61,976 nt of DNA, from contig CALKXT010000001.1 of assembly GCA_938003685.1 (NCBI GenBank), forward strand, positions 1 to 61,976, read 5' to 3'. Source of the DNA: an uncultured Sulfitobacter sp. (GTDB lineage: Bacteria; Pseudomonadota; Alphaproteobacteria; Rhodobacterales; Rhodobacteraceae). The translations under genes and the position numbers were made by a program. Under the pieces are notes generated by a model that was given only the letters and a program-made list of their open reading frames with translations, searched no databases and was not told the origin of the DNA. Shown piece after piece: positions 17,352-33,069 of the stretch; within the stretch, counting starts at the first letter, position 1, and each line of letters begins with the position of its first letter.

Positions 17352-18464
17352 TCAAGTGTGGCGCATCAGGCTTTTGATCTGATCGGAATCGTAACCAATT
17401 TCGCGCAATACATCAGCCGTATCACCGCCCACTGCACCTGATGCTTTTGGCGTTTTGAAGTGTGACCGTCCAAACTTTGGCGCAGTGCCAGATTGTAAAA
17501 TGCCTTGTGGTGCCTCAAAATTAACGCGCGCCACATTGTGAGGGTGTTGAGCCGCTTCGCTAAAGGTCAGTACAGGGGCCACGCAAGCGTCAGAACCATC
17601 GAATAGTTCGGCCCAATGATCGCGAGTTTCAGTTGCAAATGTCTTTGCAAGTTCGGCACTACGCGCGCGCCATGTGGATTTGTCATTCTGGTTTTCACGA
17701 TACGCATCAGGAAGCTTCAGTTTTTCGAGAAAAATTGCATAGAACTGCGGTTCTAACGCACCAACAGAAATGAATTTGCCATCACAACACGTGTAACACC
17801 GATAGAATGGCGCGGCCCCATCTAACCAATTATCAGCGCGTTTCTCGCTCCACTTACCTTGCGCCAGCATACCGTGGATCAACCCCATCATCGCTGGCAC
17901 ACAATCGACCATGGCCGCATCTACTACCTGTCCTTTGCCAGACACTGCACGTTCGATCACGGCGGATAGGATTCCAAACAGCAAGAACATCGTACCACCG
18001 CCATAATCCGCCACCAAATTAAGCGGTGGAACGGGCGGTTGATCACCCTGTCCCATGGCATGCAAAGCACCGGTCAACGCCAAGTAGTTAATGTCATGAC
18101 CCGCGGTCTTGGCCCACGGCCCGTCCTGCCCCCAGCCTGTCATACGGCCATAGATCAAAGTGTCGGGGCACTCCTTTGGACCTAAACCTAGACGTTCCAT
18201 CACGCCGGGACGGAAGCCTTCGATCAATATATCACTGGCTGCGATAATATTACCTGCCGCTAGAACACCCGCCTCTGATTTTAGGTTAAGCACAATGGAT
18301 CGCTTGCCGCGCCGATTTATGTCAGTGGGGTCAGGCGACGCTGCACTGCGATCAATTGTAGTGACCTGTGCGCCCAGATCAGCCAGCAATTGACCGGCAA
18401 GCGGCGCTGGCCCAAGCCCAGAAAACTCAACAACTTTTAGTGACGTCAGTGGCCCCGATTTCAT
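17352..18464 (-). CDS. Class III CoA-transferase / alpha-methylacyl-CoA racemase-like protein
   Basis: A 370-aa CaiB/BaiF-superfamily protein. The N-terminus LKVVEFSGLGPAPLAGQLLADLGAQV is the family Rossmann-like start, and RRGKRSIVLNLK is the CoA-binding region. GHDINY (H123) and ADYGGG (D153) match the His/Asp pair used for alpha-proton exchange in alpha-methylacyl-CoA racemase, so racemase is more likely than CoA transferase. Its ATG overlaps the stop of the C45 gene by 4 bases (18461-18464), making it the last gene of the TRAP-linked operon. It may act on a CoA ester in that pathway, or be a fatty-acid racemase that happens to be co-transcribed. Confidence 0.85.
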   Translation of the reverse strand: MKSGPLTSLKVVEFSGLGPAPLAGQLLADLGAQVTTIDRSAASPDPTDINRRGKRSIVLNLKSEAGVLAAGNIIAASDILIEGFRPGVMERLGLGPKECPDTLIYGRMTGWGQDGPWAKTAGHDINYLALTGALHAMGQGDQPPVPPLNLVADYGGGTMFLLFGILSAVIERAVSGKGQVVDAAMVDCVPAMMGLIHGMLAQGKWSEKRADNWLDGAAPFYRCYTCCDGKFISVGALEPQFYAIFLEKLKLPDAYRENQNDKSTWRARSAELAKTFATETRDHWAELFDGSDACVAPVLTFSEAAQHPHNVARVNFEAPQGILQSGTAPKFGRSHFKTPKASGAVGGDTADVLREIGYDSDQIKSLMRHT

Positions 18465-19432
18465 TCTACCCCCGGCAACATCACATTGCGTGCGCCCTCG
18501 ACGAAGTCATTCAATGACAATGGCCAAACTGTGCCGGGCCAGCGCAATTCCATCTCGCGTTTCCGGGGTCGATAGACAGCGGTGTAAAGCGTACCAAAAC
18601 CCGCACTAAATGCCGTTGAATACAGCGGCGGTTTGAGGAACGCATTGATGAATTTTTCTTCGGGGTCTTTATGCATGCGTAAGCGATTCAGCAGATAACG
18701 CTCGCGCTCTACCGTTGCTGTGAACCGTGCATGGCTAACCCATTCGACGTTTTCCTGGTGGTTGGTCGCCACCGCTGCGTGGGTGATTTGAGTTGACCGA
18801 TCTGGCCCCATCATCGCCGTCGCATAGTTACGCTTGCGATCCAAAACTGTCACATTATAGCTCATGTGCGTTGGTACCCGTTGAAGCGCCTCAGTGGCTT
18901 GATCAACAGTTTCACAAGTCTGCAACACATATCGCAGTATCAGCGGCACACCAAAGCCGACGCCAACAACGCGCCGCCCGCCAAAGGTCAGAGATATAGA
19001 CAGGCCAGCGTCATTCACACCATCGACCAGCCCCCAAAGACCATCGGACGTGCCCATGACCCGACGACCCAACCAGTTGGTGTTTAGCACCAGTTGATCG
19101 AATGCATTTGGATTATAATCGTAATTGCGCACCATGACCGGCTCTTTACCCGCCCAAATCGCTTGACTACAGCCCGCCAAATACGGGGGCGGGTTGTACA
19201 GGCTAAGGAAACGCGCGGCCTGATCCCCGCCACCGGCCAACGCGCATAGTTCGTCGTATAGCGGCACCAGTTCGGGCATGTGCGTGTTTAATGCGCGACG
19301 ACACTCTGCATATGTTGGTCGCGCGGCATCGCCTTCCTTGAGCCACCATTTACGGTAGTCAGGCCAATATTCAGCGAAAAGCCCAGACCATTTTGGCCCG
19401 GGCGTTTCTTCCTGTAGGGCGCGCCAGTACAT
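18461..19432 (-). CDS. C45-type Ntn hydrolase / acyltransferase
   Basis: A 323-aa protein related to isopenicillin-N acyltransferase and acyl-CoA:6-APA acyltransferase. AGCSQAIW places the likely autocatalytic nucleophile at Cys88, followed by VMVRNYDY, the conserved stretch after the cleavage point. LVDGVNDAGLSISLTFGG is another family signature, and NATV-like core strands follow. These enzymes self-cleave before the Cys and then hydrolyse or transfer acyl groups on amide bonds. The gene starts 18 bp after the ATP-grasp stop and overlaps the CoA-transferase by 4 bp, so it belongs to the same operon. The substrate is unknown; a role in amide formation or cleavage on an amine made by the neighbouring decarboxylase is an inference. 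Confidence 0.8.
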   Translation of the reverse strand: MYWRALQEETPGPKWSGLFAEYWPDYRKWWLKEGDAARPTYAECRRALNTHMPELVPLYDELCALAGGGDQAARFLSLYNPPPYLAGCSQAIWAGKEPVMVRNYDYNPNAFDQLVLNTNWLGRRVMGTSDGLWGLVDGVNDAGLSISLTFGGRRVVGVGFGVPLILRYVLQTCETVDQATEALQRVPTHMSYNVTVLDRKRNYATAMMGPDRSTQITHAAVATNHQENVEWVSHARFTATVERERYLLNRLRMHKDPEEKFINAFLKPPLYSTAFSAGFGTLYTAVYRPRKREMELRWPGTVWPLSLNDFVEGARNVMLPGVE

Positions 19433-19450
19433 TCGTGCCTTTCCGTATCG

Positions 19451-20908
19451 TTAAAGGATTTTAAAGGCCGGGTCAGAAAGTGCAGGACCAGCCGCAGCGG
19501 TTGGCAATGGCTTGCCATCTACCGCTTGCTTAATACCGTGAATCCACTTTTTCGCGCGTTCATTCAACTGGAAAGACTTGGTCATCGAACGGCCACGGGT
19601 CACGAGGATCCCGATGTCAGCCCCTTCATAGCGATAGCTATCAGGTGTCATGATGCGCAAAAAGAACGCTTCATTTTCAGATTCAACCGCCCGGCGGTGA
19701 TAATCAAAGCGGTCAAAGACAACGCGGCCATCCTCCAACATCTTGTAGATTCCAGTTTCAGGACTTGCTGTGCAGATATCGACACTATCATCTGTATGTT
19801 TGATCACCATCTGTGACCAACCGTCGATCATCTCAGGATCGGCCCAGCGGTTGTTCAACTCGTCCACATCCAGATCAAATTTCTTTTTGGAGAATTCAAG
19901 CAGGTGGAACAAGAACAATGGGGCGTCAGCATGCGCAAAAGCGGCGTGGTTGGTCATTGATGACGCGCCAGTGATACGTGGGTTAAGCTCTCCCAACCAA
20001 AGGTCACCGGTTTTTTTGTCGATCAAGAAATCGAGTTCAAAGTACCCCCGATACCCTTCTTTGCGCAGTTGCTCACCGAACTTGAACGTCAGATCGCGTG
20101 CCTTTTCACGGACCTTTGGTGGAAAAGCAGTAGCAAGGATTTCGTTACCACACCAACCACCGCGATACGGAGTCAGTTCTTTGAAACCAACAAGTTCTGT
20201 CATCAATGGACCAACGATTGTGCCCTCTTTGGTTGCACAAGCCTCAATCGCAGAACCGCGGCAATCGATCCGCTTCATGATTTTGATTTCGCCTTCCCCA
20301 ACGATCTCTGATTCATGACGACGGAAATCGGCCTCGGATTTGATAAAGAATGTTGTGTGGCCGCTATCACCAAAGGCGGATTGCAACACCAGATCGTGGC
20401 CAATACCGGCCTTTTCACAGGTTTTGCGCAGATCCTCATAAGACTTCACTTCGGCCAGTACGTTTGGCACGGACGGCACACCCGCTTTATTACCGATGCG
20501 GACAGTCTCGATCTTGTTGTCCATGGAGGTGCGCAATTTAGCCTTCGGGAACCAGACATCAGCACCCAGTTCTTTTGACAACCTCTCAGTTTCCTCATCA
20601 AACATTAGGAACACAAATTTAGGTTTGCCTCCGCGACGCTTGATGAAATCAATCACCTCTTTGTGCTGCAAGAGGTAGTTGTTGATGTCCTCAATCGACT
20701 GGAATTCCGCGTGCGGTTGTTCAGACGGGCAGAATACGTTTGGATGCTTGCCGCCATAACAATCGATATAGCAGATATATTTGAAGTTCTTGACCCACTC
20801 ATCCAAGCCCAAAAGGTTAAAGTTGGTCGCAGAGATGAAGTAAACCGGGTCTTCATTCCGATGAAAGAACCGGCGAATTTCTGAGATATTCTTGAGAACT
20901 GTAGCCAT
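19451..20908 (-). CDS. ATP-grasp domain protein (putative carboxylate-amine ligase)
   Basis: A 485-aa ATP-grasp enzyme. The N-terminal half has a preATP-grasp-like fold. Next come KAKLRTSMDNKIETVRIGNKAGVPS (ligand loop), LVLQSAFGDSGHTTFFI (the glycine-rich ATP clamp), YRGYFELDFLI and LWLGELNPRITGA, which carries the Mg-binding Glu and Asn. The fold joins a carboxylate to an amine, thiol or similar group through an acyl phosphate. No biotin-carboxylase domain organisation is visible, although automated pipelines often use that name. It lies 18 bp after the decarboxylase gene, with GAAGGAA before the ATG. The natural product of this ligase is unknown to me. Confidence 0.8.
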   Translation of the reverse strand: MATVLKNISEIRRFFHRNEDPVYFISATNFNLLGLDEWVKNFKYICYIDCYGGKHPNVFCPSEQPHAEFQSIEDINNYLLQHKEVIDFIKRRGGKPKFVFLMFDEETERLSKELGADVWFPKAKLRTSMDNKIETVRIGNKAGVPSVPNVLAEVKSYEDLRKTCEKAGIGHDLVLQSAFGDSGHTTFFIKSEADFRRHESEIVGEGEIKIMKRIDCRGSAIEACATKEGTIVGPLMTELVGFKELTPYRGGWCGNEILATAFPPKVREKARDLTFKFGEQLRKEGYRGYFELDFLIDKKTGDLWLGELNPRITGASSMTNHAAFAHADAPLFLFHLLEFSKKKFDLDVDELNNRWADPEMIDGWSQMVIKHTDDSVDICTASPETGIYKMLEDGRVVFDRFDYHRRAVESENEAFFLRIMTPDSYRYEGADIGILVTRGRSMTKSFQLNERAKKWIHGIKQAVDGKPLPTAAAGPALSDPAFKIL

Positions 20909-20926
20909 GTTTATGGTTCCTTCTTT

Positions 20927-23701
20927 TTATGCGGGTGATGAAGAAAGGTGTTTGTTACACACCCGTTTTAATGCGTCATCGGTAAAGACGCGCAGGCCTA
21001 AATCAGGGCGGTAGCCATGAATTTCGCTTACGTCTAAGGCACGCATGAATGATAGAATTTCCTGGCTGACAACCTGTCCGGGGACAAGGATTGGAAAGCC
21101 CGGCGGGTAGGGGATGATAAAGCTGGCGGACACCACGGTATTGCCTGCGTCCATCGCTTCTTTCAACGATCCGTTCAGTTCCAGATAGTCACAATTTTTC
21201 TCGTCATATGACAAGAAAAATGCTGTGCGAATATCACCTTCTGAGGTCACATCATCCGCGCGGAACGCTTCGTGAAAACGGCTGAAATCAGGCAGCGGCG
21301 GATAGTTTTCCATCAGGTTTGCGACGCGCTTGTCAAACGACAACCGCTCCATCTTGCTGGCGTCATCCAGCAATTCATCCAGTGACTTGGCGATCTCAAC
21401 CAATACCTCGATCAGATAAGCAACGGACGACCGCGTGGTGCCAATGTTGGTCATGAACAACACGGTATTACGCGAGGTTTTGTTGATCTGGATACCATAT
21501 TTATCCATCAAGATATCGGTCTTGAAGGTATCACCGTCCCAGCCAGTCCCACCAACGGCCAGCGTGACGCGTGTGGCATCAAGAACAAAGGTATCTTGTT
21601 CCCAACAATCCCACATATCGGTCCAGCCTTGCTGGCTGTCATAATAGCTGGTCACGCCGCTCTCGCGGTATTCTTCGGGGATCATGTCACCGGCAGTTAA
21701 CACCTTGAAGTACTTGTTCAGCAAGGGATGGTCGGTGATGGCACGACGCATCGACATGGCCGCCTCAATCTGTCGTTGGACAAACTCAAACCCTTCAAGT
21801 TCAACTTGCCTGCGACCCACATCCAGTGACGCGATAATCTGATAATTTGGCGATGTAGACGTGTGGGTCATATACGCCTCGTGGAACGATTGTTCGACTT
21901 CACCTTTGAAGTCCTGATCATTCACATGGATCATCGACCCTTGGCGCAAAGATGTCAGCGTTTTGTGCGTGGATTGCGTTGTATAGACCCTAACGCGCGC
22001 CTTTGGTGATGGGATTAACCTTGTGTTGAGGATTGTCTCATCATCCGCATCTTTCAGTATTTCCTGCTGGGCATCATAGGCGTTTGCGTGTGCTTCAGAT
22101 TTGAATTTTTCGCGCAACGTGTTGGCGGCGTTCATGCCAGTACGCTGGCGATAAGTCGGGTTGAAACGGGCGAAAGCAAACCACGCCTCATCCCAGAGAA
22201 AGATCAAGTCGGGCTTGATCGCCAGACATTCTTCCATCATCCGCTCAACATTATAAACCAGACCATCAAATGTACAGTTGGTCAGCAGCAACATGCGCAC
22301 TTGATCCAGCTTACCTGCCGCCTTGAGCGCTAGCAGTTGATGCTTGATCTCACGCAACGGCACGGCACCGTACATTGAATATTTGTTCAACGGATAGCTA
22401 TCAAGGTAACAGACCTGCGCACCCGCCAGCACCATGCCGTAGTGGTGCGATTTGTGGCAATCACGGTCCACCAGAACAATATCGCCGGGGCGCACAAGCG
22501 CCTGCACCACGATCTTGTTACAGGTCGATGTACCGTTGGTGGCAAAGAACGTCTGTTTGGACCCAAACGCACGGCTGGCGAGTTCTTGTGCCTCTTTGAT
22601 CGGCCCATGTGGTTCAAGCAGTGAATCCAAACCGCCTGAGGTGGCAGAGGTTTCCGCAAGGAAGATATTAGGACCGTAAAACGCGCCCATATCCTGAATC
22701 CAATGAGACCGGGTGATCGATTTGCCCCGGCTGATAGGCATCGCATGAAAGACACCAGTTGGCTGCTTGGAATACTCAACAAGCGCGGTAAAAAACGGTG
22801 ACTTATTGCGCGACTGAACACCGCGCAGGATGTTCAGGTGCAGTTCCATAAAGTCTTCTTGGTTATAGAAAACCCGCCGACATATGCCCAGATCAAGGCC
22901 CGCGATGTCCTCAACAGACCGTTCAGTCACAAGATAGGCATCCAATTCAGGACGCACTTTGGCGATCATCCGGCACAGTTCGGGGCCGTAGTTTTCTGGC
23001 GACAAAGCCTCAATCTCTTCGCGGCCACCAGCGCGGGCCAGATAGCGGGTTAAGATAGATTCAACCATGTTTGATTTCAACGTCAGACCCGGACGCACCA
23101 CGATGGCCTGAATGTTGTGGTTGAACATCACCGCAATTAGCGCGTCCTCAATGGACGGCACGACAACGGGTTCATAAATGAACTGATCTTCAGGGCGACG
23201 CATCCGTAAAATATTAGATTTCAACCAACGATCTTGCTGCTCGCTGACGTTATCGACGATCAAAACTTCAAAATATGGTTTACTCATTGCCCGCGCTTCG
23301 GGGCTTAGCAATTCTTCGTCGTTATGCTCCTCGGCATCCATGCTGTCGCGCTCCAACGGGATGGAACGGCGGCGATAGGCACCTGTAGTTAACGCACGTG
23401 TTACCCGGTTAACGGCAAAGGCCAGATCATCATAATTTTCATGACCAAACTGACGACGCATATGTTCAAACGCCGACATGCCGGGAAATGCCCAATAGGG
23501 TTCGATCAGCGCAAGAGAATTAAACAGGTTGATGACCTTGGCGCTTAATTCCTTGACCTCTTTGGCCTTGGGGTCACGCGTCAATGCGGACGTTGCAGCG
23601 CGCAGGGCACTCCAGCGATCAGACCTCAATTGGATTGCGGACGAATAGTCATTCATATCATGCATCAGGTCTTCTCCGCTATACGGCGTCCACTGTTGCA
23701 T
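20927..23701 (-). CDS. Orn/Lys/Arg-type PLP decarboxylase, long form
   Basis: A fold-type I PLP decarboxylase of the Orn/Lys/Arg group. After an N-terminal region of about 150 residues comes a receiver-like wing domain (FEVLIVDNVSEQQDRWLKS...IQAIVVRPG). The PLP domain follows, with FATNGTSTCNKIVVQAL, DRDCHKSHHYG, LWDEAWFAF and the Schiff-base lysine K580 in STHKTLTSLRQGS. At 924 aa it is well above the 710-760 aa of the E. coli enzymes, mainly through the N-terminus. It would convert a basic amino acid to its amine and CO2; which amino acid is not readable. The listed start is ATG 23701. ATG 23665 has the better ribosome site (GGAGAAG) and may be the true start. Operon partners are the nitrilase upstream and the ATP-grasp gene downstream. 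Confidence 0.88.
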   Translation of the reverse strand: MQQWTPYSGEDLMHDMNDYSSAIQLRSDRWSALRAATSALTRDPKAKEVKELSAKVINLFNSLALIEPYWAFPGMSAFEHMRRQFGHENYDDLAFAVNRVTRALTTGAYRRRSIPLERDSMDAEEHNDEELLSPEARAMSKPYFEVLIVDNVSEQQDRWLKSNILRMRRPEDQFIYEPVVVPSIEDALIAVMFNHNIQAIVVRPGLTLKSNMVESILTRYLARAGGREEIEALSPENYGPELCRMIAKVRPELDAYLVTERSVEDIAGLDLGICRRVFYNQEDFMELHLNILRGVQSRNKSPFFTALVEYSKQPTGVFHAMPISRGKSITRSHWIQDMGAFYGPNIFLAETSATSGGLDSLLEPHGPIKEAQELASRAFGSKQTFFATNGTSTCNKIVVQALVRPGDIVLVDRDCHKSHHYGMVLAGAQVCYLDSYPLNKYSMYGAVPLREIKHQLLALKAAGKLDQVRMLLLTNCTFDGLVYNVERMMEECLAIKPDLIFLWDEAWFAFARFNPTYRQRTGMNAANTLREKFKSEAHANAYDAQQEILKDADDETILNTRLIPSPKARVRVYTTQSTHKTLTSLRQGSMIHVNDQDFKGEVEQSFHEAYMTHTSTSPNYQIIASLDVGRRQVELEGFEFVQRQIEAAMSMRRAITDHPLLNKYFKVLTAGDMIPEEYRESGVTSYYDSQQGWTDMWDCWEQDTFVLDATRVTLAVGGTGWDGDTFKTDILMDKYGIQINKTSRNTVLFMTNIGTTRSSVAYLIEVLVEIAKSLDELLDDASKMERLSFDKRVANLMENYPPLPDFSRFHEAFRADDVTSEGDIRTAFFLSYDEKNCDYLELNGSLKEAMDAGNTVVSASFIIPYPPGFPILVPGQVVSQEILSFMRALDVSEIHGYRPDLGLRVFTDDALKRVCNKHLSSSPA

Positions 23702-23703
23702 GG

Positions 23704-23730
23704 CCTCCCCGGTAATAAAAGCCGGGAAGG
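23704..23730 (-). promoter_or_regulatory. Intercistronic hairpin overlapping the decarboxylase ribosome site
   Basis: On the minus strand CCTTCCCGG (23730-23722) can pair with CCGGGGAGG (23712-23704) over nine pairs, one of them U-G, around a nine-base AU-rich loop. The 3' arm contains the purine-rich GGGGAGG immediately before ATG 23701. No U-tract follows, so it is not a terminator. If 23701 is the start, the hairpin would mask the ribosome site; if 23665 is the start, it is an intergenic stabiliser. Confidence 0.45.
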
Positions 23731-23741
23731 AATACAGCAGC

Positions 23742-24854
23742 TTAGCCGCTTGATGTTTCGCCCGTTCCGGTAAGTGTACCGGGCTTTATAGGTGGGTTGG
23801 GTGTGGCCGCAGGTGGTTCTGCGGGAATGGGTGCTTGGGTTGGTGCGCTTGCCATACCAGCAGTCGCATTTGGCATAGGTTCAGGTGCAATTGGGCCTGG
23901 CGTATGGCCCATTGCTTCAAGAGCTTCTTGTCCTTTGTAGATCGGCGCATCTGCCACGCTTTGGGCAGGCACATCCACGTGCAAACCAGCACGCGTGCCT
24001 TGCTGCGGCACCTCTAAGGGGCCCAGAGTTTTCAGATAGGCATCTGTGCCGCTGTTGCGATCATAAACCGAAAAATCAGTCGGGCGGTCGCGGAAGGATT
24101 TGAGAACTTGCCCCAAACCTTTCATGCCCGTCTCACGCTGGCGTCGCACCATCGAAAGGTCGACCTCAATCGGGAACATGTCCTCTTGTCCTGCAGATTG
24201 GTGCAGAACCATCGATGTTGGGTCAATCACACAGGATTTGCCGACACCACCCGCGCCCAAACCGTTCACGTCAAAGATATAACACTGGAATTGCGCCGCA
24301 GTCGCGCGCGCAATCGCCAATTCTGCGTCACGGTCCGTGGTTCCTGTCAGGACAGGGTGCAACAGAACTTCAACACCTTGGCTTGTCAGTTGGCGCGTGG
24401 TTTCGGGGAACCAGATATCATAGCAGATAGACAGGCCAAAACGCCCAACATCAGGCACGTCAAACACGCAGAAATCTGTGCCCGCAGCGATGCCTTGTTC
24501 GTAAGGACGGAATGGGAACATCTTGGAGTAACGTCGAATGATCTCACCCTCGGGGTTGATCACGACGGATGTGTTGTAAACCCGGCCATCTTCGGGGTCT
24601 TTCAAGAACATCGAGCCGGGGATAAGCCAAACCCGGTGCTTGCGGGCCGCTTCTTGAAACTGCTCAATTGTTTCGTTTTCTGGCGGCAGGGCAAAACGAT
24701 CTAGCGGACCAAATGGAGCCAATTCCGAAAACAGAACCATCTGAGTCCACGGAAACCGGGCCATCAGAATATCGAGCCGTTGGATCATGCCATCGACGTT
24801 GGAATGCAAGGCGTTGACGTACATTTGCACGCCGGCAATTGCGAAAGGTGTCAT
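23742..24854 (-). CDS. Nitrilase-superfamily amidohydrolase with Pro/Ala-rich tail
   Basis: A 370-aa carbon-nitrogen hydrolase. The catalytic triad is visible: E44 (FSELAPFG), K111 (RRYSKMFPF) and C144 (SICYDIWFPE). The domain (about 1-270) follows the alpha-beta-beta-alpha pattern, with R..AA.Q near residue 190. Family members hydrolyse amides such as N-carbamoylputrescine or transfer acyl groups. The last 80 or so residues are a low-complexity tail rich in Pro, Ala, Thr and Gly, absent from ordinary nitrilases and of unknown purpose. It lies downstream of the TRAP permease after a 166-bp gap with a hairpin, and 40 bp upstream of the decarboxylase. It could act on an amide made or imported by this operon. 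Confidence 0.85.
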   Translation of the reverse strand: MTPFAIAGVQMYVNALHSNVDGMIQRLDILMARFPWTQMVLFSELAPFGPLDRFALPPENETIEQFQEAARKHRVWLIPGSMFLKDPEDGRVYNTSVVINPEGEIIRRYSKMFPFRPYEQGIAAGTDFCVFDVPDVGRFGLSICYDIWFPETTRQLTSQGVEVLLHPVLTGTTDRDAELAIARATAAQFQCYIFDVNGLGAGGVGKSCVIDPTSMVLHQSAGQEDMFPIEVDLSMVRRQRETGMKGLGQVLKSFRDRPTDFSVYDRNSGTDAYLKTLGPLEVPQQGTRAGLHVDVPAQSVADAPIYKGQEALEAMGHTPGPIAPEPMPNATAGMASAPTQAPIPAEPPAATPNPPIKPGTLTGTGETSSG

Positions 24855-24882
24855 AAGGGGTCACTCCGTACAGGGCAGCGTT

Positions 24883-24908
24883 GTTTTGCAGGAGAATTCC
24901 CGCAAAAC
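24883..24908 (-). other. Hairpin in the leader of the nitrilase gene
   Basis: GTTTTGC (24883-24889) and GCAAAAC (24902-24908) form a 7-bp stem around an internal GG...CC segment. It lies about 30 bases upstream of the nitrilase ATG in the 166-bp gap after the TRAP permease gene. No T-run follows on either strand, so a terminator is unlikely; an RNA stability or processing element, or a protein site, is possible. Confidence 0.35.
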
Positions 24909-25020
24909 AGACTGCGTTGCACGTCCTTTACGCCCATCACTGGGGAAGTAAAACAGATGACTTGCGGACAACCTAAACGACCAAAGTATAGTCGATATTT
25001 ATGCACTGCGACGATAACGC

Positions 25021-27789
25021 TTACGCCACTGCTGGCTGACGGGTGCCGCGCGCATTGCGTCCCCGCTGCAAGAAAATTACCATACCCAGCAGCAATAGCG
25101 CAGGCAGGAACATCCAATACTTTGATGGAACATCCACAGGCTTGAGAACGCGCAAGACCTCTTGATCCCAGTCTAGCCCTGCATCAGCGGCAGCACTTCC
25201 AAAGGCAACGTCGTCGATGATCATTTTGTCGCCATCCTCGCGGAACGCCAGCCCGGCATTTTCCAGCTTTTCTTGGCCTGTTGCGCCTTCGACAATCGGC
25301 AGGATCGCCACAAACTCAATAGGATCACCAAAGCTATCTTGTGCGGCGACACGTATGCGTAGGTCTTCACCCGGTTGCGTCACCTCAGCAGCTTGCACGA
25401 TTTCAGACGGTGCTACCTCGTCAAAGGGTGGCGCGACCATATCCATCCAGAACCCCGGACGGAACAGTGTGAACGCAATCAACAAAAGTGCGGCGGATTC
25501 ATAAAAGCGGTTCTTGGCAAAGAACCAGCCTTGTGTGGCGGCAGCAAAGAGCAGCATCGCAATGGTCGCGACAATGAAGACAAAGATACCTTGCCCCCAA
25601 TTCACGCCAATCAACAGAAGTTCAGTGTTGAAGATGAACAGGAACGGCAGCGCAGCAGTCCGCAAGCTATAGAAGAACGCAACCACACCCGTTTTGATCG
25701 GATCACCACCAGATACGGCAGCGGCAGCGAAACTCGCCAAGCCAACCGGCGGCGTCACGTCAGCCATGATACCGAAGTAGAACACGAAGAGGTGCACAGC
25801 AATCAGTGGCACGATCAAACCGTTCTGCTGGCCCAAAGTCACAATGACGGGGGCAAGCAATGCGGACACAACGATGTAGTTCGCCGTTGTTGGCAGACCC
25901 ATACCGAGGATCAGTGATAGAACAGCAGTTAGGAAGAGAATGGCAAGGATGTTACCGCCCGACAGCACCTCAACCACGTTTGCCAATGACGCACCAACGC
26001 CCGTCTGGCTGACCACACCCACGATGATGCCCGCAGTCGCCGTTGCGATGCCGATACCGATCATGTTGCGCGCGCCAGTGACAAGGCCATCGATCAAGTC
26101 CATGAAGCCTTCTTTGATGTCGGCGGCAAAATTGCTTTCACCACGGAAAATCGCCATCAATGGACGCTGGGTCACAAGGATGAACACCATGTAAGACGTT
26201 GCCCAGAAGGCGGACAGGCCGGGCGACAGACGGTCAACCATCAACGCCCAAACCAGAACCACAATTGGGAGGATGAAGTGCAAACCTGAACGTACTGTTG
26301 GTCCGGCAAGCGGCAGACGTGTCACAGGAGCGTTCGGATCATCCAATTTGAGCGGTTCTTCTTTAGACGCAATGAACAGCAAGAATGCATAAACCGACGT
26401 CAGGAATACAAAGATGATGTAGCCAGCGGTTTCTGGAAACGCCGGACGAATCCAGCCCATGAAGTATTTCACTGCAAAGCTAAGCACACAGATGCCCGCG
26501 ATTACGAATGCGATTGACATCAGCCAAGCAACCCACGGTTTCGGCTCTACCGCACGCGGCAGACCTTCCATGCCGGCCTTGAGTGCTTCGAGATGCACGA
26601 TATAGACTAACGCGATGTAGGAAATTGTGGCAGGCAAGAAGGCGTGTTTGACGACTTCGGGGTACGGGATACCCACGTATTCAACCATCAAGAATGCAGC
26701 AGCCCCCATGACGGGCGGCATGATTTGACCATTGACGGATGAGGCCACTTCGACAGCACCCGCTTTTTCAGAACTAAAGCCAACCTTTTTCATTAGCGGA
26801 ATGGTGAACGTCCCGGTTGTCACCACGTTGGCGATAGACGATCCAGAGATCAGGCCCGTCATAGCCGAGGATACAACAGCAGCCTTTGCAGGTCCGCCTT
26901 TCATGTGACCCATCAGGCTGAACGCGACTTGGATAAAGTAGTTACCTGCACCTGCACGGTCCAGCAAAGAACCGAAAAGAACAAAGAGGAAAACGAACGA
27001 CGTCGAAACACCCAGCGCAATACCAAACACACCTTCAGTCGTAATCCATTGGTGGTTCACAATTTCAGAGAGCGAGTTACCTTTGTGCGCGATGATGCCC
27101 GGCATCGATGGTCCAAGTACTGTATACATCAAGAAAACCGAGGCCACGATCATCAAGGCAGGTCCAAGCGCGCGGCGCGTCGCCTCAAGCAGGATCATAA
27201 TGCCAATGACGGCCACGACAAAGTCCTGCATGATCGGCGCGCCCACGCGGGTCGAGATATCGCGGTAATATACATATAGATATAGTGCTGCGATGGCACC
27301 AATGACGGCCAGTGCCCATTCCCAAATCGGCATCTTGTCCTTAGGTGAACCAAGGATAACCGTGGCAACAACGCCCAGCGCGATGATGGGAATCCACCAC
27401 GTTGCTGTGCCGTCTTTAGCGCCTGTCATAAACAGAAATGCCAGTGCCACAGGAACGGCGACACCAAGGATCAATTGAAACTTAGTCCGCGCGGCCGGAA
27501 ACGCAGCAATACCAAGAAAAATCGCAAACGCGAGGTGGATCGAACGGGATTCAGTATCGTTGAAAACCCCAAAACCTAGGATGAAGGGTATCGGTGATGC
27601 GATCCAAAGTTGGAAAAGCGACCATGCCAGTGCAACGAGCATCAGGAAGGTGCCGACGGGACCCGTTATGGCCCGGCCACCTGTATCAGAAGAGGCGACC
27701 ATTGCGTCGAGCTCTTCTTGACTTAATCCACCTCGGCCTGCGGCGGCGGCTTCGACGGCGGCAGCTTGCTGTTGATCATTGTTGGTCAT
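25021..27789 (-). CDS. TRAP transporter fused permease (4TM/12TM, TAXI type)
   Basis: A 922-aa inner-membrane permease joining the small DctQ-like and large DctM-like subunits in one chain, the form that partners TAXI binding proteins. Around 16 or more hydrophobic segments are visible. The DctM part has GSSIANVVTTGTFTIPLMKK and QIMPPVMGAAAFLM, the repeated GS.. and MPP loops of this family, and MGLPTTANYIV. A soluble C-terminal stretch (about 800-890) ends with one more helix, as in TRAP permeases carrying the DUF3394-type extension. It would import an organic acid or similar solute with Na+. It follows the TAXI gene after 110 bp with a strong hairpin between them. Confidence 0.93.
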   Translation of the reverse strand: MTNNDQQQAAAVEAAAAGRGGLSQEELDAMVASSDTGGRAITGPVGTFLMLVALAWSLFQLWIASPIPFILGFGVFNDTESRSIHLAFAIFLGIAAFPAARTKFQLILGVAVPVALAFLFMTGAKDGTATWWIPIIALGVVATVILGSPKDKMPIWEWALAVIGAIAALYLYVYYRDISTRVGAPIMQDFVVAVIGIMILLEATRRALGPALMIVASVFLMYTVLGPSMPGIIAHKGNSLSEIVNHQWITTEGVFGIALGVSTSFVFLFVLFGSLLDRAGAGNYFIQVAFSLMGHMKGGPAKAAVVSSAMTGLISGSSIANVVTTGTFTIPLMKKVGFSSEKAGAVEVASSVNGQIMPPVMGAAAFLMVEYVGIPYPEVVKHAFLPATISYIALVYIVHLEALKAGMEGLPRAVEPKPWVAWLMSIAFVIAGICVLSFAVKYFMGWIRPAFPETAGYIIFVFLTSVYAFLLFIASKEEPLKLDDPNAPVTRLPLAGPTVRSGLHFILPIVVLVWALMVDRLSPGLSAFWATSYMVFILVTQRPLMAIFRGESNFAADIKEGFMDLIDGLVTGARNMIGIGIATATAGIIVGVVSQTGVGASLANVVEVLSGGNILAILFLTAVLSLILGMGLPTTANYIVVSALLAPVIVTLGQQNGLIVPLIAVHLFVFYFGIMADVTPPVGLASFAAAAVSGGDPIKTGVVAFFYSLRTAALPFLFIFNTELLLIGVNWGQGIFVFIVATIAMLLFAAATQGWFFAKNRFYESAALLLIAFTLFRPGFWMDMVAPPFDEVAPSEIVQAAEVTQPGEDLRIRVAAQDSFGDPIEFVAILPIVEGATGQEKLENAGLAFREDGDKMIIDDVAFGSAAADAGLDWDQEVLRVLKPVDVPSKYWMFLPALLLLGMVIFLQRGRNARGTRQPAVA

Positions 27790-27852
27790 CGATCATCCCC
27801 CTGTTGCCCCACCTTGTGGCGAGTGCACATTCTTAGTTTTGGGTCGGAAAAT

Positions 27853-27882
27853 GCGTAGTGGCAAGATTACTCGCCACTACGC
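27853..27882 (-). terminator. Strong hairpin between TAXI protein and TRAP permease genes (attenuator-like)
   Basis: GCGTAGTGGC at 27853-27862 and GCCACTACGC at 27873-27882 are perfect 10-bp complements around a 10-base loop. On the minus strand the stem is followed by ATTTTCC, a weak U-tract. It sits 17 bases after the binding-protein stop, where partial termination or 3' protection would make the binding protein more abundant than the permease. Confidence 0.6.
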
Positions 27883-27899
27883 CAATCATTTAGCCTAGA

Positions 27900-28859
27900 T
27901 TATTCAATCCAGCCTTTTTCTTTGTAGTATTTTGCAGCACCGGGGTGCAGCGGTGCAGAAAGACCTGCTGAAATCATCTCTTCTTCTTTGAGATTTTCAA
28001 AGGCAGGGTGCAGGCGCTTGAAGCGATCAAAGTTGTCAAAGACGGCCTTCACAACTTGATAAACTACGTCATCGTCAACATCCGCAGATGTCACAAATGT
28101 TGCTTTTACACCAAAGGTATTGGTTTCTGCGTCAGACCCTTTGTACATGCCGCCAGGAATGCTGGCTGCTGCATAGTAGGGGTTGTCCGCAATCAACTTG
28201 TCGATTTCAGGACCCGTCACAGGCACCATGACCGCATCAACTGTTGAAACCGCTTCCTGAATGGAACCATTTGGGTGACCAACAGTGTAGATAATCGCAT
28301 CTACCTTGTTATCGCCCAAAGCTGCGGCTTGCTCGGCTGGCTTCAACTCTGATGCCAGTGCAAAATCATCCAGTGTCCAACCCAATGCGTCCATGACGAC
28401 CTGCATTGTGGCGTGCTGGCCAGAACCGGGGTTACCGATATTTACGCGCTTGCCTTTAAGATCCGCAAACGACGTGATGCCCGCATCCGCACGCGCAATC
28501 ACGGTAAATGGCTCACCGTGAACAGAGAATACAGCGCGTTCATTTTCGAATTTGTTACCTTCGAATTTCGAGGTGCCATTATAGGCGTGGAACTGCCAAT
28601 CGGATTGGGCAACACCCATATCCATGTCGCCAGCCTTGATCGCGTTGATATTGGCGATGGAGCCGCCTGTTGAGGGCGCAGTACATTTCAACCCATGATC
28701 GGCTGAACCACGGTTCACCAAACGGCAAATCGACTGACCCACAACGAAATAGACGCCCGTTTGGCCGCCTGTTCCAATCGTGATGAATTTTTCCTGGGCC
28801 ATTGCAGTTGTACTGGCCATCATGGCCCCCGCAACAGCTAACATTTTGAACATTTTCAT
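27900..28859 (-). CDS. TAXI family TRAP transporter solute-binding protein
   Basis: A 319-aa periplasmic binding protein. The signal peptide ends at about AMAQE (residue 22-24). The mature start FITIGTGGQTGVYFVVGQSICRLVN is the TAXI signature, followed by APSTGGSIANINAIKAGDMDMGVAQSDWQFHAYNG read over two strands. It delivers substrate to the fused TRAP permease encoded downstream. AAAGGGAGA lies before the ATG. As the first gene of the seven-gene operon it is expected to reflect that pathway's substrate. Known TAXI substrates include glutamate-like and aromatic acids, but specificity cannot be read here. Confidence 0.93.
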   Translation of the reverse strand: MKMFKMLAVAGAMMASTTAMAQEKFITIGTGGQTGVYFVVGQSICRLVNRGSADHGLKCTAPSTGGSIANINAIKAGDMDMGVAQSDWQFHAYNGTSKFEGNKFENERAVFSVHGEPFTVIARADAGITSFADLKGKRVNIGNPGSGQHATMQVVMDALGWTLDDFALASELKPAEQAAALGDNKVDAIIYTVGHPNGSIQEAVSTVDAVMVPVTGPEIDKLIADNPYYAAASIPGGMYKGSDAETNTFGVKATFVTSADVDDDVVYQVVKAVFDNFDRFKRLHPAFENLKEEEMISAGLSAPLHPGAAKYYKEKGWIE

Positions 28860-29252: not shown

Positions 29253-30869
29253 ATGCCTGACCTCACTTCACTAAATCGATTTATGCCTCTGGTTGGGGTG
29301 ATGGTCCTCGCGCTAATCTCATTCATTCTTATGCTCGCATGGTCAGGTTGGTTTGTCTTCCCGCTCGTCTTGTTTGGCGTACTAACCGCGATGGGTTTGT
29401 ACGATCTGATACAGACCAAACATTCAATCCTGCGCAATTACCCGGTGCTGGGCCATATGCGGTTTTTCTTTGAAGGTATCCGCCCAGAAATTCGCCAATA
29501 TCTGATTGAATCGGATCAGGATGAAGAACCGTTTAGCCGCGATGACCGCAGCCTTGTCTATCAACGCGCCAAAGGCCAAGAAGACGCCCGGCCTTTTGGT
29601 ACGCGCATGCGTGTCTATGATGCAGGGTATTCTTGGGTCACACATTCGGTGCAACCTAAGCATATCGAGGACTGCAATTTTAGGGTGAAGGTCGGCAATG
29701 ATGCTTGCAAACAACCTTATGAGGCATCGCTTTATAATATTTCAGCAATGAGTTTTGGCTCTTTATCAGCAAATGCCATCCAAGCCCTGAACACAGGTGC
29801 CAAACTGGGCGGCTTTGCCCATGATACGGGCGAAGGATCAGTTAGCCGCTATCACAAAGCCGGCGGTGGTGACCTCATTTACCAACTCGCATCCGGCTAT
29901 TTTGGCAGTCGGGCCGAAGATGGTACATTTGACCCTGACAAGTTTGCCGAAACGGCATCGCTTGATCAAATCAAAATGATTGAACTGAAGTTAAGTCAAG
30001 GGGCCAAGCCGGGTCATGGCGGTATGTTGCCCGCATCCAAAATCAGCCCAGAAATAGCTGAGGCGCGCGGCGTACCTATGGGAAAAGATTGTGTTTCACC
30101 TGCATCCCATTCGGCTTTTTCGACTCCGATTGAGATGATGCAGTTCTTGGGGAAACTGCGCGAGCTATCTGGGGGCAAGCCTGTTGGGTTCAAGCTGTGT
30201 ATCGGTCACCAACGTGAATTTATGTGCATGGTGAAGGCGATGTTGGAAACCAAGATTGTGCCAGATTTCATTGTCGTTGATGGTACCGAGGGCGGCACAG
30301 GTGCAGCCCCGGTCGAATTCTCAAACCACGTGGGCATGCCGATGGTAGAAGGGCTGACATTCGTTCACAATACATTGCGCGGTGCAAGTCTGCGTGATCA
30401 GGTCAAAGTTGGGGCGGCTGGTAAAGTTGTTTCTGCTTTTGACGTTGCCCGCGCATTGGCAATGGGCGCGGATTGGTGCAACTCGGCACGCGGTTTTATG
30501 TTTTCGATTGGCTGTATTCAGGCCCAAGCCTGCCACACAAACCATTGCCCAGTTGGCGTTGCGACCCAAGACAAGATACGCCAACGCGCTTTAGATGTCG
30601 GGCACAAAAGCGAACGCGTCGCCCGTTTTCATAAAAACACGATGGAGGCACTGGGCGAAATGACCGGGGCCGCAGGACTATCGCATCCAAGCGAATTCCA
30701 GCCTCGCCATCTTATGCTGCGCCAAGGCGACAAAAGCATGGTTCAAGGCGATGAGGTATATGCTTATCTACCTGATGGGTATCTGCTGGATGATGAAGCC
30801 GTGGATTACAAAGGGAACAAAACGCGCTGGGCTCGGGCGCGGGCTGACAGTTTTGACCCAATCGACTGA
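29253..30869 (+). CDS. FMN-binding glutamate synthase family protein, membrane-anchored
   Basis: A 538-aa protein with two N-terminal hydrophobic segments (LVGVMVLALISFILMLAW and FVFPLVLFGVLTAMGLY), followed by the FMN/synthase barrel of the GltB large subunit. SAMSFGSLSANAIQALN, GEGSVSRYH, KPGHGGMLPASK and DGTEGGTGAAP are the FMN-binding and glutamate-synthase motifs. The 3Fe-4S cluster cysteines are C421, C427 and C432 (CIQAQACHTNHC). It lacks the N-terminal glutaminase domain and the C-terminal GXGXG domain, so it is not a full GOGAT. Such stand-alone proteins are common in proteobacteria and their reaction is not settled. It ends at a bidirectional terminator shared with gabT. Confidence 0.9.
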   Translation: MPDLTSLNRFMPLVGVMVLALISFILMLAWSGWFVFPLVLFGVLTAMGLYDLIQTKHSILRNYPVLGHMRFFFEGIRPEIRQYLIESDQDEEPFSRDDRSLVYQRAKGQEDARPFGTRMRVYDAGYSWVTHSVQPKHIEDCNFRVKVGNDACKQPYEASLYNISAMSFGSLSANAIQALNTGAKLGGFAHDTGEGSVSRYHKAGGGDLIYQLASGYFGSRAEDGTFDPDKFAETASLDQIKMIELKLSQGAKPGHGGMLPASKISPEIAEARGVPMGKDCVSPASHSAFSTPIEMMQFLGKLRELSGGKPVGFKLCIGHQREFMCMVKAMLETKIVPDFIVVDGTEGGTGAAPVEFSNHVGMPMVEGLTFVHNTLRGASLRDQVKVGAAGKVVSAFDVARALAMGADWCNSARGFMFSIGCIQAQACHTNHCPVGVATQDKIRQRALDVGHKSERVARFHKNTMEALGEMTGAAGLSHPSEFQPRHLMLRQGDKSMVQGDEVYAYLPDGYLLDDEAVDYKGNKTRWARARADSFDPID

Positions 30870-30932: not shown

Positions 30933-32333
30933 TTAGTGTGCTTCTTCGGCAATCGCCGCTTGAACTGACGCTTCAAAAATCGCCATACCTTCTTCGATAA
31001 TCGCATCAGATGCTGTCAGCGGCACCATCACGCGAACAGTGTTGCCGTGCATCCCACAACTGAGCAGCAGCAAACCACGTTTCAGTGCATGTGCAATCAC
31101 CCGCTTGGTGAAATCTGCGTCAGGTTTGATGCTATCAAAATCAGTGACGAATTCGACGCCAATCATCGCACCCAGACCACGAATATCCCAGAAGCGGAAT
31201 GGCGCAGACCGCGCACCAATCTCGGCAAAGCGTGCCTTGAGAACCTCACCCATCGCAGTTGATCGGGCCAACAGGGATTCTTCTTCGATGGCTGCAATCG
31301 CGGCCAATGCAGCAGCACAAGCAACGGGGTTGCCGCCGTATGTGCCACCCAAGCCACCCGGTGCCATTGCATCCATGATATCCGCGCGACCGATAACACC
31401 TGCAAGCGGATAACCACCCGCCATAGACTTCGCCACGGTGATCAGGTCAGGCACAACACCAGAATGTTCAATCGCAAACCACGTGCCTGTGCGACCAAAG
31501 CCAGCCTGTACTTCGTCAGCGATCAACAAGATGCCGTGCTGATCACAAATCTCGCGCAACTGCTGCAACATGTCGAAGGGTACAGGAACATACCCACCTT
31601 CACCCAAAACCGGTTCGATGATGATCGCAGCAACACGTTCTGGCTGCGCGTCTGTTAAGAACAAGTTTTTCAGGGCTGTGATTGAATCCTGAACAGTGAT
31701 GCCATCACGCACGGATGGGAACGGCGCACGGAAGATATCGGAGGGGAATGGACCCACGTCTTTTTTGTATGGTGACACTTTGCCAGTCATACCAAGTGTC
31801 AACAGTGTGCGACCATGATAGCCGCCAGTAAAGGCAATCACACCCGGACGACCTGTTGCTGCGCGTGCAATCTTGACCGCGTTTTCAACGGCTTCGGCAC
31901 CTGTTGTGACCAACAGCGTTTTCTTTGGTGCATTACCCGGTGCCAACGCATTCAGCTTTTCAGCCAGTTCAACGTAGGGACCATAAGGCACAACTTGAAA
32001 AGAGGTGTGCGTATACTGGTCTTCTTGGGCTTTGGCTGCTTCAACCACCTTGGGGTGACGGTGGCCTGTGTTGAGCACACCAATACCACCAACAAAGTCG
32101 ATATAACGGTTACCTTCAACATCCCAAAGCTCAGCGTTTTCAGCGTACTTTGCATAAATTGGGGCGGCAGAGGCAACGCCACGTGGCACGGCGGCATCGC
32201 GGCGCGCAACCAATTGAGCGTTGGTCAAATCAGCGTCAGCAACAGCTTGAGACACGATGTCTTTAACGGCTTCCATTTGCGTCTTCTTTTTTACTGCGGT
32301 CTTGCGACGTGGCTTCTTTGCGGTGCTGGACAT
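30933..32333 (-). CDS. gabT: 4-aminobutyrate aminotransferase (class III) with Lys-rich N-terminal extension
   Basis: A PLP enzyme that moves the amino group of GABA (and often 5-aminovalerate) to 2-oxoglutarate, giving succinate semialdehyde. Class III motifs are present: LWDVEGNRYIDFVGGIGVLNTGH, VTTGAEAVENAVKIARA, LIADEVQAGFGRTG and the Schiff-base lysine K302 in VAKSMAGG. GabT normally begins near TNAQLVARRDAAVPRG; here about 37 residues precede it, the first part rich in Lys, Arg and Ala. The chosen ATG 32333 has AAGGA nine bases upstream; the frame is open seven codons further. It is divergent from an XRE-cupin regulator, a typical arrangement for putrescine/GABA use. Confidence 0.92.
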   Translation of the reverse strand: MSSTAKKPRRKTAVKKKTQMEAVKDIVSQAVADADLTNAQLVARRDAAVPRGVASAAPIYAKYAENAELWDVEGNRYIDFVGGIGVLNTGHRHPKVVEAAKAQEDQYTHTSFQVVPYGPYVELAEKLNALAPGNAPKKTLLVTTGAEAVENAVKIARAATGRPGVIAFTGGYHGRTLLTLGMTGKVSPYKKDVGPFPSDIFRAPFPSVRDGITVQDSITALKNLFLTDAQPERVAAIIIEPVLGEGGYVPVPFDMLQQLREICDQHGILLIADEVQAGFGRTGTWFAIEHSGVVPDLITVAKSMAGGYPLAGVIGRADIMDAMAPGGLGGTYGGNPVACAAALAAIAAIEEESLLARSTAMGEVLKARFAEIGARSAPFRFWDIRGLGAMIGVEFVTDFDSIKPDADFTKRVIAHALKRGLLLLSCGMHGNTVRVMVPLTASDAIIEEGMAIFEASVQAAIAEEAH

Positions 32334-32352
32334 ATCAAAATTCCTTTGCTTC

Positions 32353-32370
32353 AAACGCCAACATGCGTTT
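32353..32370. promoter_or_regulatory. Inverted repeat in the gabT leader, possible regulator site
   Basis: AAACGC (32353-32358) and GCGTTT (32365-32370) are perfect 6-bp complements with a six-base spacer. The repeat lies between the candidate promoter and the ribosome site of gabT. It is a plausible operator for the divergent XRE-cupin regulator, by position only. Confidence 0.35.
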
Positions 32371-32517: not shown

Positions 32518-33069
32518 TTGGACATAGGCCACAAACTTCGAACCATTCGAAAGCAACGCGGCTTGTCCCAACGCGAACTTGCCGCCCGTGCGGGCCTGAC
32601 CAACGGTACAATTTCGCTGATCGAAAAGAACCGTACAAGCCCATCCGTTGCATCCCTAAAAAGTCTGTTGGACGCGATTCCAATCAGCATGGCAGAGTTC
32701 TTTTCAACGCTGGAAGAAACCGAGGCACCAAAGGTGTTTTACCGTGCGGATGAGTTCACCGAGGTCGCGCCAACACGTGAAGGTCAGGTATCACTGCGCC
32801 AACTGGGCAATGCCGAACATCACGCCTTGCAGGTGCTACACGAAACCTATCCTGCGGGCGCGGATACAGGCCCAGAACTATTAACGCATGAAGGCGAAGA
32901 GGCAGGCATCGTCGTGCGTGGTACAATGGAGGTAACTGTTGACGGGAACGTGGCCGTATTGAAATCTGGCGATGGTTATCTCTTCGATAGTCGCCGACCA
33001 CATCGTTTTCGCAATATCGGTGAGGATGTTTGCGAAGTGGTCAGCGCCTGTACTCCGCCCAGCTTTTGA
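32518..33069 (+). CDS. XRE-family regulator with C-terminal cupin (PuuR-like)
   Basis: A 183-aa transcription factor. The N-terminal helix-turn-helix is LRTIRKQRGLSQRELAARAG and the following NGTISLIEKNRTSPSVASLKSLL (about residues 8-50). A small cupin sensor domain follows, with THEGEEAGIVVRGTMEV and GDGYLFDSRRPHRFRN. The layout matches PuuR, the repressor of putrescine use in E. coli. The start is a TTG at 32518 preceded by AAGGA at seven bases; the nearby ATG at 32510 is out of frame. It is divergent from gabT and probably represses it, with the ligand likely a polyamine or omega-amino acid. Confidence 0.85.
   Translation: MDIGHKLRTIRKQRGLSQRELAARAGLTNGTISLIEKNRTSPSVASLKSLLDAIPISMAEFFSTLEETEAPKVFYRADEFTEVAPTREGQVSLRQLGNAEHHALQVLHETYPAGADTGPELLTHEGEEAGIVVRGTMEVTVDGNVAVLKSGDGYLFDSRRPHRFRNIGEDVCEVVSACTPPSF

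What the first reader, a model, noticed from the sequence alone, without database searches (positions are those of the whole stretch)
17352..28859. Uncharacterised seven-gene operon: TAXI-TRAP importer, amidase, amino-acid decarboxylase, ATP-grasp ligase, C45 Ntn acyltransferase, CoA-transferase/racemase
The sequence shows seven same-strand genes. The five enzyme genes are separated by 40 bp, 18 bp, 18 bp and a 4-bp overlap, and each carries intact catalytic motifs (K580; E44-K111-C144; Cys88; H123/D153; the ATP-grasp Glu/Asn). Family knowledge: a PLP decarboxylase makes an amine, an ATP-grasp enzyme joins an amine to an acid, and nitrilase and C45 enzymes make or break amides. Together these can build or recycle an amide-linked amine from an imported acid. 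I know of no described pathway with this set. Inference: a new polyamine-amide or N-acyl amine pathway, for catabolism of an imported compound or synthesis of a small signal.
Basis: partly seen in the sequence, partly recalled or inferred. Interest (0 to 1): 0.8.

Follow-up and report, generated by a model that had tools for sequence, protein, structure and literature searches.

The report
Glutamate importer with unknown amide enzymes
A conserved set of four bacterial enzymes of unknown pathway sits behind what is very probably a glutamate importer, and its decarboxylase looks rebuilt to accept an acidic amino acid such as glutamate rather than the basic ones its relatives use, which points to an undescribed glutamate-to-GABA amide route in marine and root-nodule bacteria.

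Summary
The seven genes, spacing and catalytic residues are as described. The conserved unit is smaller: nitrilase-like amidase (NIT), Orn/Lys/Arg-type decarboxylase (OKR), ATP-grasp (GRASP) and C45 hydrolase (C45), in that order in 77 of 80 close loci, the other three cut by contig ends. TAXI (42/80) and CoA-transferase (16/80) are accessory. In 32 more diverse GRASP loci, C45 is near in 30, OKR in 26, NIT in 21. My paper searches listed no description of the set.

The polyamine reading is weakened. TAXI keeps 9 of 13 named glutamate contacts of VcGluP. OKR keeps the PLP residues but has R325, R586, N740 and Q876 where four basic-amino-acid decarboxylases have other residues, several acidic. 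OKR genes without GRASP lie beside AspT-type antiporters in 6 of 6 loci. A GABA transaminase gene is nearby.

Best model: glutamate is imported and decarboxylated to GABA; GRASP joins an omega-amino acid in an amide; C45 and NIT cleave amides. Import is well supported, the acidic substrate moderately; the amide steps are inferred. 'Biotin carboxylase' is a doubtful name for GRASP.

The parts
27900..28859 (-). TAXI-family TRAP solute-binding protein, probable L-glutamate receptor
   Evidence: TIGR02122 353 bits over cut-off 84; PDB 8s4j 418 bits; of 13 VcGluP contacts named in PMC11574862 (passages) V44, Y45, S75, Q93, H123, E125, G156, Y200, G203 are kept in the window and in 42 of 42 TAXI genes of the locus set; S40, Y46, D157, M201 differ
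25021..27789 (-). fused TRAP permease with C-terminal DUF3394 domain
   Evidence: TIGR02123 646 bits over cut-off 321; PF11874 DUF3394 at residues 734-912, the 'claw' domain of VcGluQM (PMC11574862, passages)
23742..24854 (-). NIT: nitrilase-superfamily amidase, E44-K111-C144
   Evidence: PF00795; triad plus E119 in 18 of 18; best solved relative NIT2 (2w1v), 103 bits
20927..23701 (-). OKR: long Orn/Lys/Arg-fold PLP decarboxylase of the Rv2531c type, predicted acidic amino-acid decarboxylase
   Evidence: PF01276 254 bits; profile of 21 members hits 9n0n/9n0o over nearly the full length, 1122 bits; K580 in 28 of 28; R325, R586, N740, Q876 differ from the four annotated basic-amino-acid decarboxylases
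19451..20908 (-). GRASP: ATP-grasp ligase (NF005096/PRK06524, named 'biotin carboxylase')
   Evidence: 755 bits over cut-off 684; E307/N309/R311 invariant; the position aligned with the bicarbonate-activating Glu of biotin carboxylase is A, I or C in 26 of 26
18461..19432 (-). C45: self-processing Ntn-hydrolase/acyltransferase, nucleophile C88
   Evidence: NF040521 193 bits over cut-off 85; C88 in 24 of 24, G87 in 23 of 24
17352..18464 (-). family III CoA-transferase/racemase, accessory
   Evidence: PF02515; present in 16 of 80 related loci
30933..32354 (-). 4-aminobutyrate transaminase (GabT), outside the stated range
   Evidence: TIGR00700 551 bits over cut-off 507, but below the cut-offs of three PRK-type models of the same name; near the core in 32 of 80 loci at 60% identity or more
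32518..33069 (+). PuuR-like XRE-cupin regulator, outside the stated range
   Evidence: NF007408 146 bits, below cut-off 211; in 22 of 80 loci at 45% identity or more
29253..30869 (+). FMN-type glutamate synthase-like protein, divergent from the operon
   Evidence: PF01645; in 31 of 80 loci

Best explanation
A glutamate-to-omega-amino-acid module. Step 1, well supported: the TAXI-TRAP imports L-glutamate. Step 2, inferred with moderate support: OKR removes the alpha-carboxyl of an acidic amino acid, most likely glutamate to GABA, and not of lysine, ornithine or arginine. Step 3, inferred: GRASP uses ATP to join GABA (or a like omega-amino acid) to a partner as an amide. Step 4, inferred: C45, after self-cleavage at Cys88, and NIT hydrolyse such amides. 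Step 5, by family name: GabT sends the freed GABA to succinate semialdehyde. The partner of the amide, and whether the amide is a store, an osmolyte or an intermediate, is not known.
For: Importer: 418 bits to PDB 8s4j, whose numbering, by my count on the printed alignment, fits the VcGluP residues named in PMC11574862; 9 of the 13 named contacts are kept in the window and in 42 of 42 TAXI genes, the critical glutamine and Y45 among them. A TAXI-TRAP deletion in Cereibacter sphaeroides loses sodium-dependent growth on L-glutamate (PMC12632250, Transporters section). OKR: R325 27/28, R586 28/28, N740 28/28, Q876 28/28, against G, S, E/E/T/E and E in four annotated basic-amino-acid decarboxylases, with the PLP residues kept. 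Neighbours: AspT-family antiporters beside 6 of 6 GRASP-less OKR genes; a GltP/DctA-family symporter beside the Cupriavidus core, below both models' cut-offs; GabT (TIGR00700) and succinate-semialdehyde dehydrogenase (TIGR01780) over cut-off in L108; GabT over cut-off in the window. One OKR-less lineage (L087, L112, L113) has a gene set that I read, from its annotation, as arginine to GABA. Co-inheritance: distance matrices of GRASP-OKR, GRASP-C45 and OKR-C45 over 19 loci correlate at 0.87, 0.77, 0.70, 0 of 5000 permutations as high.
Against: No activity of OKR, GRASP, C45 or NIT in this group turned up in what I searched, and for the solved OKR relative the review states that the activity was not clarified (PMC12910592, passages). 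TAXI is in only 42 of 80 loci; other loci have peptide-type ABC importers. Agmatinase-family genes near the core in L132, L134 and the Shinella group fit arginine. A urea-transporter-like gene next to OKR-GRASP-C45 in L109, with matches in L110 and, partly, L141, is unexplained. Three of the six OKR-less loci (L090, L137, L143) show no clear GABA source. The own genome holds two PF00282 decarboxylases, so it may make GABA otherwise. That the changed OKR residues touch the substrate is recalled from related structures, not modelled here; the arginine decarboxylase yardstick itself lacks the acid at position 740. The correlation of distances also carries shared species history.
Confidence: 0.4

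Rival explanations
1. One reading: OKR makes a diamine or agmatine from Lys, Orn or Arg, GRASP acylates it, C45 and NIT cleave the amide; a polyamine-amide or N-acyl amine pathway.
For: OKR falls in the Orn/Lys/Arg family; agmatinase-family genes near the core in 5 of 32 diverse loci (L087, L112, L113, L132, L134); PuuR-like regulator in 22 of 80; glutamine-synthetase-like and FAD-oxidase genes at the second copy (L090) and near the core in L075.
Against: R325, R586, N740 and Q876 differ from all four annotated basic-amino-acid decarboxylases; the partners are acidic in four of four at 876 and three of four at 740. The importer fits glutamate; AspT neighbours; the glutamylputrescine synthetase match at L090 is 206 bits, far below its cut-off of 650.
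Confidence: 0.16
2. Same logic with one carbon less: OKR turns aspartate into beta-alanine, GRASP makes and C45 cleaves beta-alanyl amides, like the carnosine/Tan pairs of animals (recalled).
For: The AspT family is named for aspartate; in L105 the core lies between DoeB-, M24-, aldehyde-dehydrogenase-, aminotransferase- and PALP-type genes of an ectoine-degradation operon, and L104 has the same order with part of the genes scanned; the end product of that route is aspartate (recalled). An OKR gene lies beside annotated ectoine genes in Phyllobacterium. The C45 family includes Tan (recalled).
Against: The importer and GabT of the window fit glutamate and GABA; L108 has GabT and SSADH.
Confidence: 0.17
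3. Order reversed: GRASP first makes a gamma-glutamyl amide, OKR decarboxylates the amide, C45 or NIT frees GABA and the carrier amine; a carrier-bound decarboxylation as in butirosin side-chain synthesis (recalled).
For: OKR precedes GRASP in 80 of 80 close loci, at most 526 bp apart by blast ends; two amide hydrolases in the same unit; a side-chain amide would also explain loss of the acidic residues.
Against: OKR stands without GRASP in 6 loci with largely the same changed residues, and GRASP without OKR in 6 of 32.
Confidence: 0.12
4. Catabolism of an imported amide or small peptide: C45 and NIT open it, OKR and GabT handle the amino acids, GRASP recycles a by-product.
For: Peptide-type ABC importers next to C45 in Roseobacter ponti and in Rhizobium plasmids.
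Against: The window's importer fits free glutamate; an ATP-using ligase is not needed for catabolism.
Confidence: 0.1

Closest known systems
VcGluPQM, glutamate-specific TAXI-TRAP of Vibrio cholerae (PMC11574862, passages)
   Same: Binding protein 418 bits to 8s4j, 9 of 13 named contacts kept, permease with DUF3394 domain.
   Different: M201 is T, D157 is Q, Y46 is F, S40 is G in the window protein; no binding measured.
Rv2531c of Mycobacterium tuberculosis, long OKR-type decarboxylase (PDB 9n0o; 9n0n has the same molecule name)
   Same: Profile match over nearly the full length, 1122 bits; equivalents of R325, R586, N740, Q876 in the printed alignment.
   Different: Whether it has an ATP-grasp partner was not looked at; activity not clarified (PMC12910592, passages).
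Decarboxylase-antiporter pairs of the LdcI/AdiA/SpeF kind
   Same: Same family and PLP residues; GRASP-less relatives sit beside antiporter genes.
   Different: The antiporters are of the AspT family and residues 740 and 876 are not acidic.
Puu pathway (gamma-glutamylputrescine to GABA)
   Same: PuuR-like regulator and GabT nearby.
   Different: No glutamine-synthetase-type ligase among the ten genes scanned; an ATP-grasp enzyme instead.
Biotin carboxylase (the NCBI name for NF005096)
   Same: Weak similarity in the ATP-grasp region; E288/N290/R292 equivalents kept (numbering recalled).
   Different: Glu296 equivalent is A, I or C in 26 of 26; no biotin carrier domain among the ten genes scanned.

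Membership tests
Glutamate TAXI-TRAP | TAXI solute receptor model | tested here: met
   TIGR02122 353 over 84
Glutamate TAXI-TRAP | glutamate-contact residues of VcGluP | tested here: met
   9 of 13 named contacts kept, including Y45, S75, Q93, E125, Y200; S40, Y46, D157, M201 differ
Glutamate TAXI-TRAP | binds or transports glutamate | not testable with these tools
   needs a binding assay
Orn/Lys/Arg decarboxylase fold | PF01276 major domain and PLP lysine | tested here: met
   254 bits; K580 28 of 28
Lysine, ornithine or arginine decarboxylase (substrate sense) | curated NCBIfam cut-off; acidic residues at 740 and 876 | tested here: not met
   best NCBIfam 220 of 968 bits; N740 and Q876 in 28 of 28, against an acid in three of four and four of four yardsticks
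PF00282 glutamate decarboxylase | Pyridoxal_deC domain | tested here: not met
   OKR hits other Pfam families only; the genome has two PF00282 genes elsewhere
Biotin carboxylase | bicarbonate-activating Glu (E296 of E. coli, recalled) | tested here: not met
   A315 position is A 22, I 3, C 1 of 26
Biotin carboxylase | NCBIfam NF005096 score | tested here: met
   755 over 684; the model groups this family but its name is not evidence of activity
C45 acyltransferase/hydrolase | model score and Gly-Cys self-cleavage site | tested here: met
   193 over 85; C88 24 of 24, G87 23 of 24
Nitrilase superfamily | Glu-Lys-Cys triad | tested here: met
   18 of 18
N-carbamoylputrescine amidase or formamidase (equivalogs) | curated cut-off | tested here: not met
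   60 of 410 and 68 of 406 bits
GABA transaminase (30933-32354) | TIGR00700 cut-off | tested here: met
   551 over 507; other models of the same name not reached, e.g. 597 of 724
Puu pathway | PuuA-type gamma-glutamyl ligase in the operon | tested here: not met
   no Gln-synt_C hit among the ten genes scanned

The most novel reading that the evidence does not exclude
The long, Rv2531c-type OKR proteins are a separate family of acidic amino-acid decarboxylases on the Orn/Lys/Arg fold, and NIT-OKR-GRASP-C45 is an undescribed pathway that turns imported glutamate into GABA amides and back. It is spread through Rhodobacterales; OKR-GRASP-C45 also sits beside nifHDKE in a Rhizobium plasmid, and the four genes sit inside an ectoine operon elsewhere.
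Probability: 0.4. Interest if true: 0.72.

Novelty: new variant of a known kind. Interest (0 to 1): 0.56.

Why it matters
It gives a concrete, testable substrate for a decarboxylase family that has a cryo-EM structure but, by the review I saw, no clarified reaction; it questions a database name (biotin carboxylase); and it identifies a conserved four-gene unit in marine Rhodobacterales, with a three-gene form in symbiotic plasmids of rhizobia, where glutamate and GABA handling is of interest.

Tried and rejected
Structure of GRASP: AlphaFold on 44 close homologues gave mean pLDDT 44, unusable, so no fold search was made. Sequence search of GRASP and C45 against solved structures found only weak relatives. 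The biotin-carboxylase reading of GRASP was set aside. The N-carbamoylputrescine route was set aside: no agmatine deiminase among the ten genes scanned and the amidase is far below cut-off. Of 107 plasmid records with a C45 match I opened two without GRASP in the stretch shown (Sulfitobacter pontiacus, S. meliloti pSymB); they gave no substrate hint. Promoter-like and terminator-like sites were near the chance count (13 against 14.4; 24 against 18.7) and were not used. I opened passages of five papers (PMC12910592, PMC4960864, PMC10385936, PMC11574862, PMC12632250) and one section of the last. The cryo-EM paper on Rv2531c is not held. Counts from the 80 loci are biased: they are the best 80 of 550 confirmed, itself a capped list, and all are 89% or more identical in GRASP. 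The genome samples overlap and both include the window's own genome. The residue table left out short or cut OKR copies (L131, L135) and used four yardsticks named by annotation. The distance test used 19 of 20 loci with all three genes after dropping one near-duplicate; its permutations do not remove shared species history. In one search and only part of the matching records was listed.
Full report
What is there. Ten genes between 17 and 33 kb were scanned with Pfam and NCBIfam. The seven of the finding are real, same-strand and in the order given.

What is conserved. In 80 related loci of Rhodobacterales, NIT-OKR-GRASP-C45 stand in this order on one strand in 77; in the other three one gene is missing at a contig end (L005, L012, L045). 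Median gaps are 85, 58.5 and 17 bp, measured between blast ends. Other genes come and go: fused TRAP permease 45, TAXI 42, GabT 32, glutamate-synthase-like 31, PuuR-like 22, CoA-transferase 16 of 80, with identity floors of 60% (45% for the regulator); a second class III aminotransferase of the PRK07483 type in 26 of 80. GRASP itself is rare: 11 of 398 genomes of the phylum sample and 11 of 385 of the class sample at E 1e-30, two overlapping samples that include the own genome. Distances of GRASP-OKR, GRASP-C45 and OKR-C45 correlate (0.87, 0.77, 0.70).

Importer. The TAXI protein matches PDB 8s4j with 418 bits. Counting the chain from residue 29, as PMC11574862 states for VcGluP, each contact named there falls on the right letter of the printed alignment by my own count. 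Of 13 named contacts, V44, Y45, S75, Q93, H123, E125, G156, Y200 and G203 are the same in the window and in 42 of 42 TAXI genes; M201 is T in the window and in 40 of 42; S40, Y46 and D157 differ in the window. The paper calls a glutamine and a tyrosine critical. The permease carries DUF3394, as VcGluQM does. In Cereibacter sphaeroides a TAXI-TRAP deletion loses sodium-dependent growth on L-glutamate and is restored by the genes (PMC12632250, section read). I take glutamate import as likely, about 0.85.

Decarboxylase. A profile of 21 OKR proteins hits the M. tuberculosis protein Rv2531c (9n0o) over nearly its full length with about 1122 bits, the classical decarboxylases with 274 bits or less. 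A 2026 review states that the study of Rv2531c did not clarify its activity (PMC12910592, passages). In an alignment of 28 long OKR proteins (22 from GRASP loci, 6 from AspT loci) with four annotated decarboxylases (LdcC, SpeF, AdiA, and an arginine/lysine/ornithine decarboxylase of Sinorhizobium), K580, H579, D504, A506, W507, H416 and T616 are the same throughout. R325 (27/28), R586 (28/28), N740 (28/28) and Q876 (28/28) replace G, S, E (T in AdiA) and E. The PGH.GG loop of the four is gone in the long family. From related structures (recalled) some of these line the substrate side chain. I read this as a pocket for an acidic side chain, about 0.6.

Neighbours. OKR genes without GRASP (L146, L148, L162 to L165; four genera, three of the six loci from one genus) have AspT-family antiporters beside them in 6 of 6, GRASP loci in 0 of 32. 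Two such antiporters of L165 score 535 and 372 against a cut-off of 547 for aspartate-alanine antiporter. L108 holds GabT (577 over 507) and succinate-semialdehyde dehydrogenase (685 over 646) next to the core. Cupriavidus (L111) has a symporter of the GltP/DctA family, below both cut-offs, and an amino-acid-type binding protein. L105 holds the core inside an ectoine operon (DoeB 491 over 403), and L104 shows the same order, with part of its genes scanned. In Shinella and two relatives OKR is missing and the unit stands among genes annotated for arginine degradation through ketoarginine.

GRASP, C45, NIT. GRASP has no Pfam hit and only weak similarity to biotin carboxylases. The residue aligned with the bicarbonate-activating glutamate (recalled) is Glu in 0 of 26, so I read it as an amide-forming ligase (inference, about 0.7). 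C45 and NIT keep their catalytic residues. What amide they share is not shown. GABA is the simplest common point of the contexts, but three of six OKR-less loci offer no clear GABA source, and agmatinase-family and urea-transporter-like neighbours remain unexplained by it.

Verdict. The pathway is unreported as far as my searches reach. The main uncertainty is the substrate of OKR and the partner in the amide; both can be settled with purified proteins.

Noticed in passing
L162:8248-11001, L163:8766-11507, L164:8553-11306, L165:8791-11544, L148:8950-11676, L146:8998-11727: Long OKR decarboxylase genes without GRASP lie beside one or two AspT-family antiporter genes in 6 of 6 loci, like a decarboxylase-antiporter acid or energy system for an acidic amino acid.
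   Followed up: partly
L147:5738-11008 and L088:9141-13682: In Rhizobium leguminosarum plasmids OKR-GRASP-C45 sits next to nifHDKE (L147) or, with a C45 remnant, some kb from fix genes and nifA (L088); the OKR gene appears split into two frames in both.
   Followed up: no
L090:2632-12850 (contig C138 of the window's own genome): A second GRASP-C45-NIT copy without OKR, beside a glutamine-synthetase-like and an FAD-oxidase gene, TRAP transporter genes and a PdxR-type regulator.
   Followed up: partly
L109:4483-12697, L110:8445-16542, L141:8616-16685: A urea-transporter domain fused to a peptidase M23 domain lies next to OKR-GRASP-C45 in L109, with a 94% match in L110 and a partial 32% match in L141; unexplained.
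   Followed up: no
L105:5633-19364 and L104:2243-14830: The core four genes are inserted in an ectoine-degradation operon in L105, and by gene order in L104.
   Followed up: partly
L087:6650-20927: GRASP-C45 in a Shinella plasmid operon with an ornithine-racemase-like gene, D-amino acid dehydrogenase, ketoarginine decarboxylase, aldehyde dehydrogenase and agmatinase-family gene.
   Followed up: partly
13945-17298: pqiA/pqiB-like genes follow the CoA-transferase after 53 bp on the same strand (names are mine), and relatives of them lie in 19 of 80 loci.
   Followed up: no
L144:9989-11083: A C45 gene beside a PHB-depolymerase-family esterase on a Sulfitobacter pontiacus plasmid, with no GRASP annotated in the 21 kb shown.
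   Followed up: no
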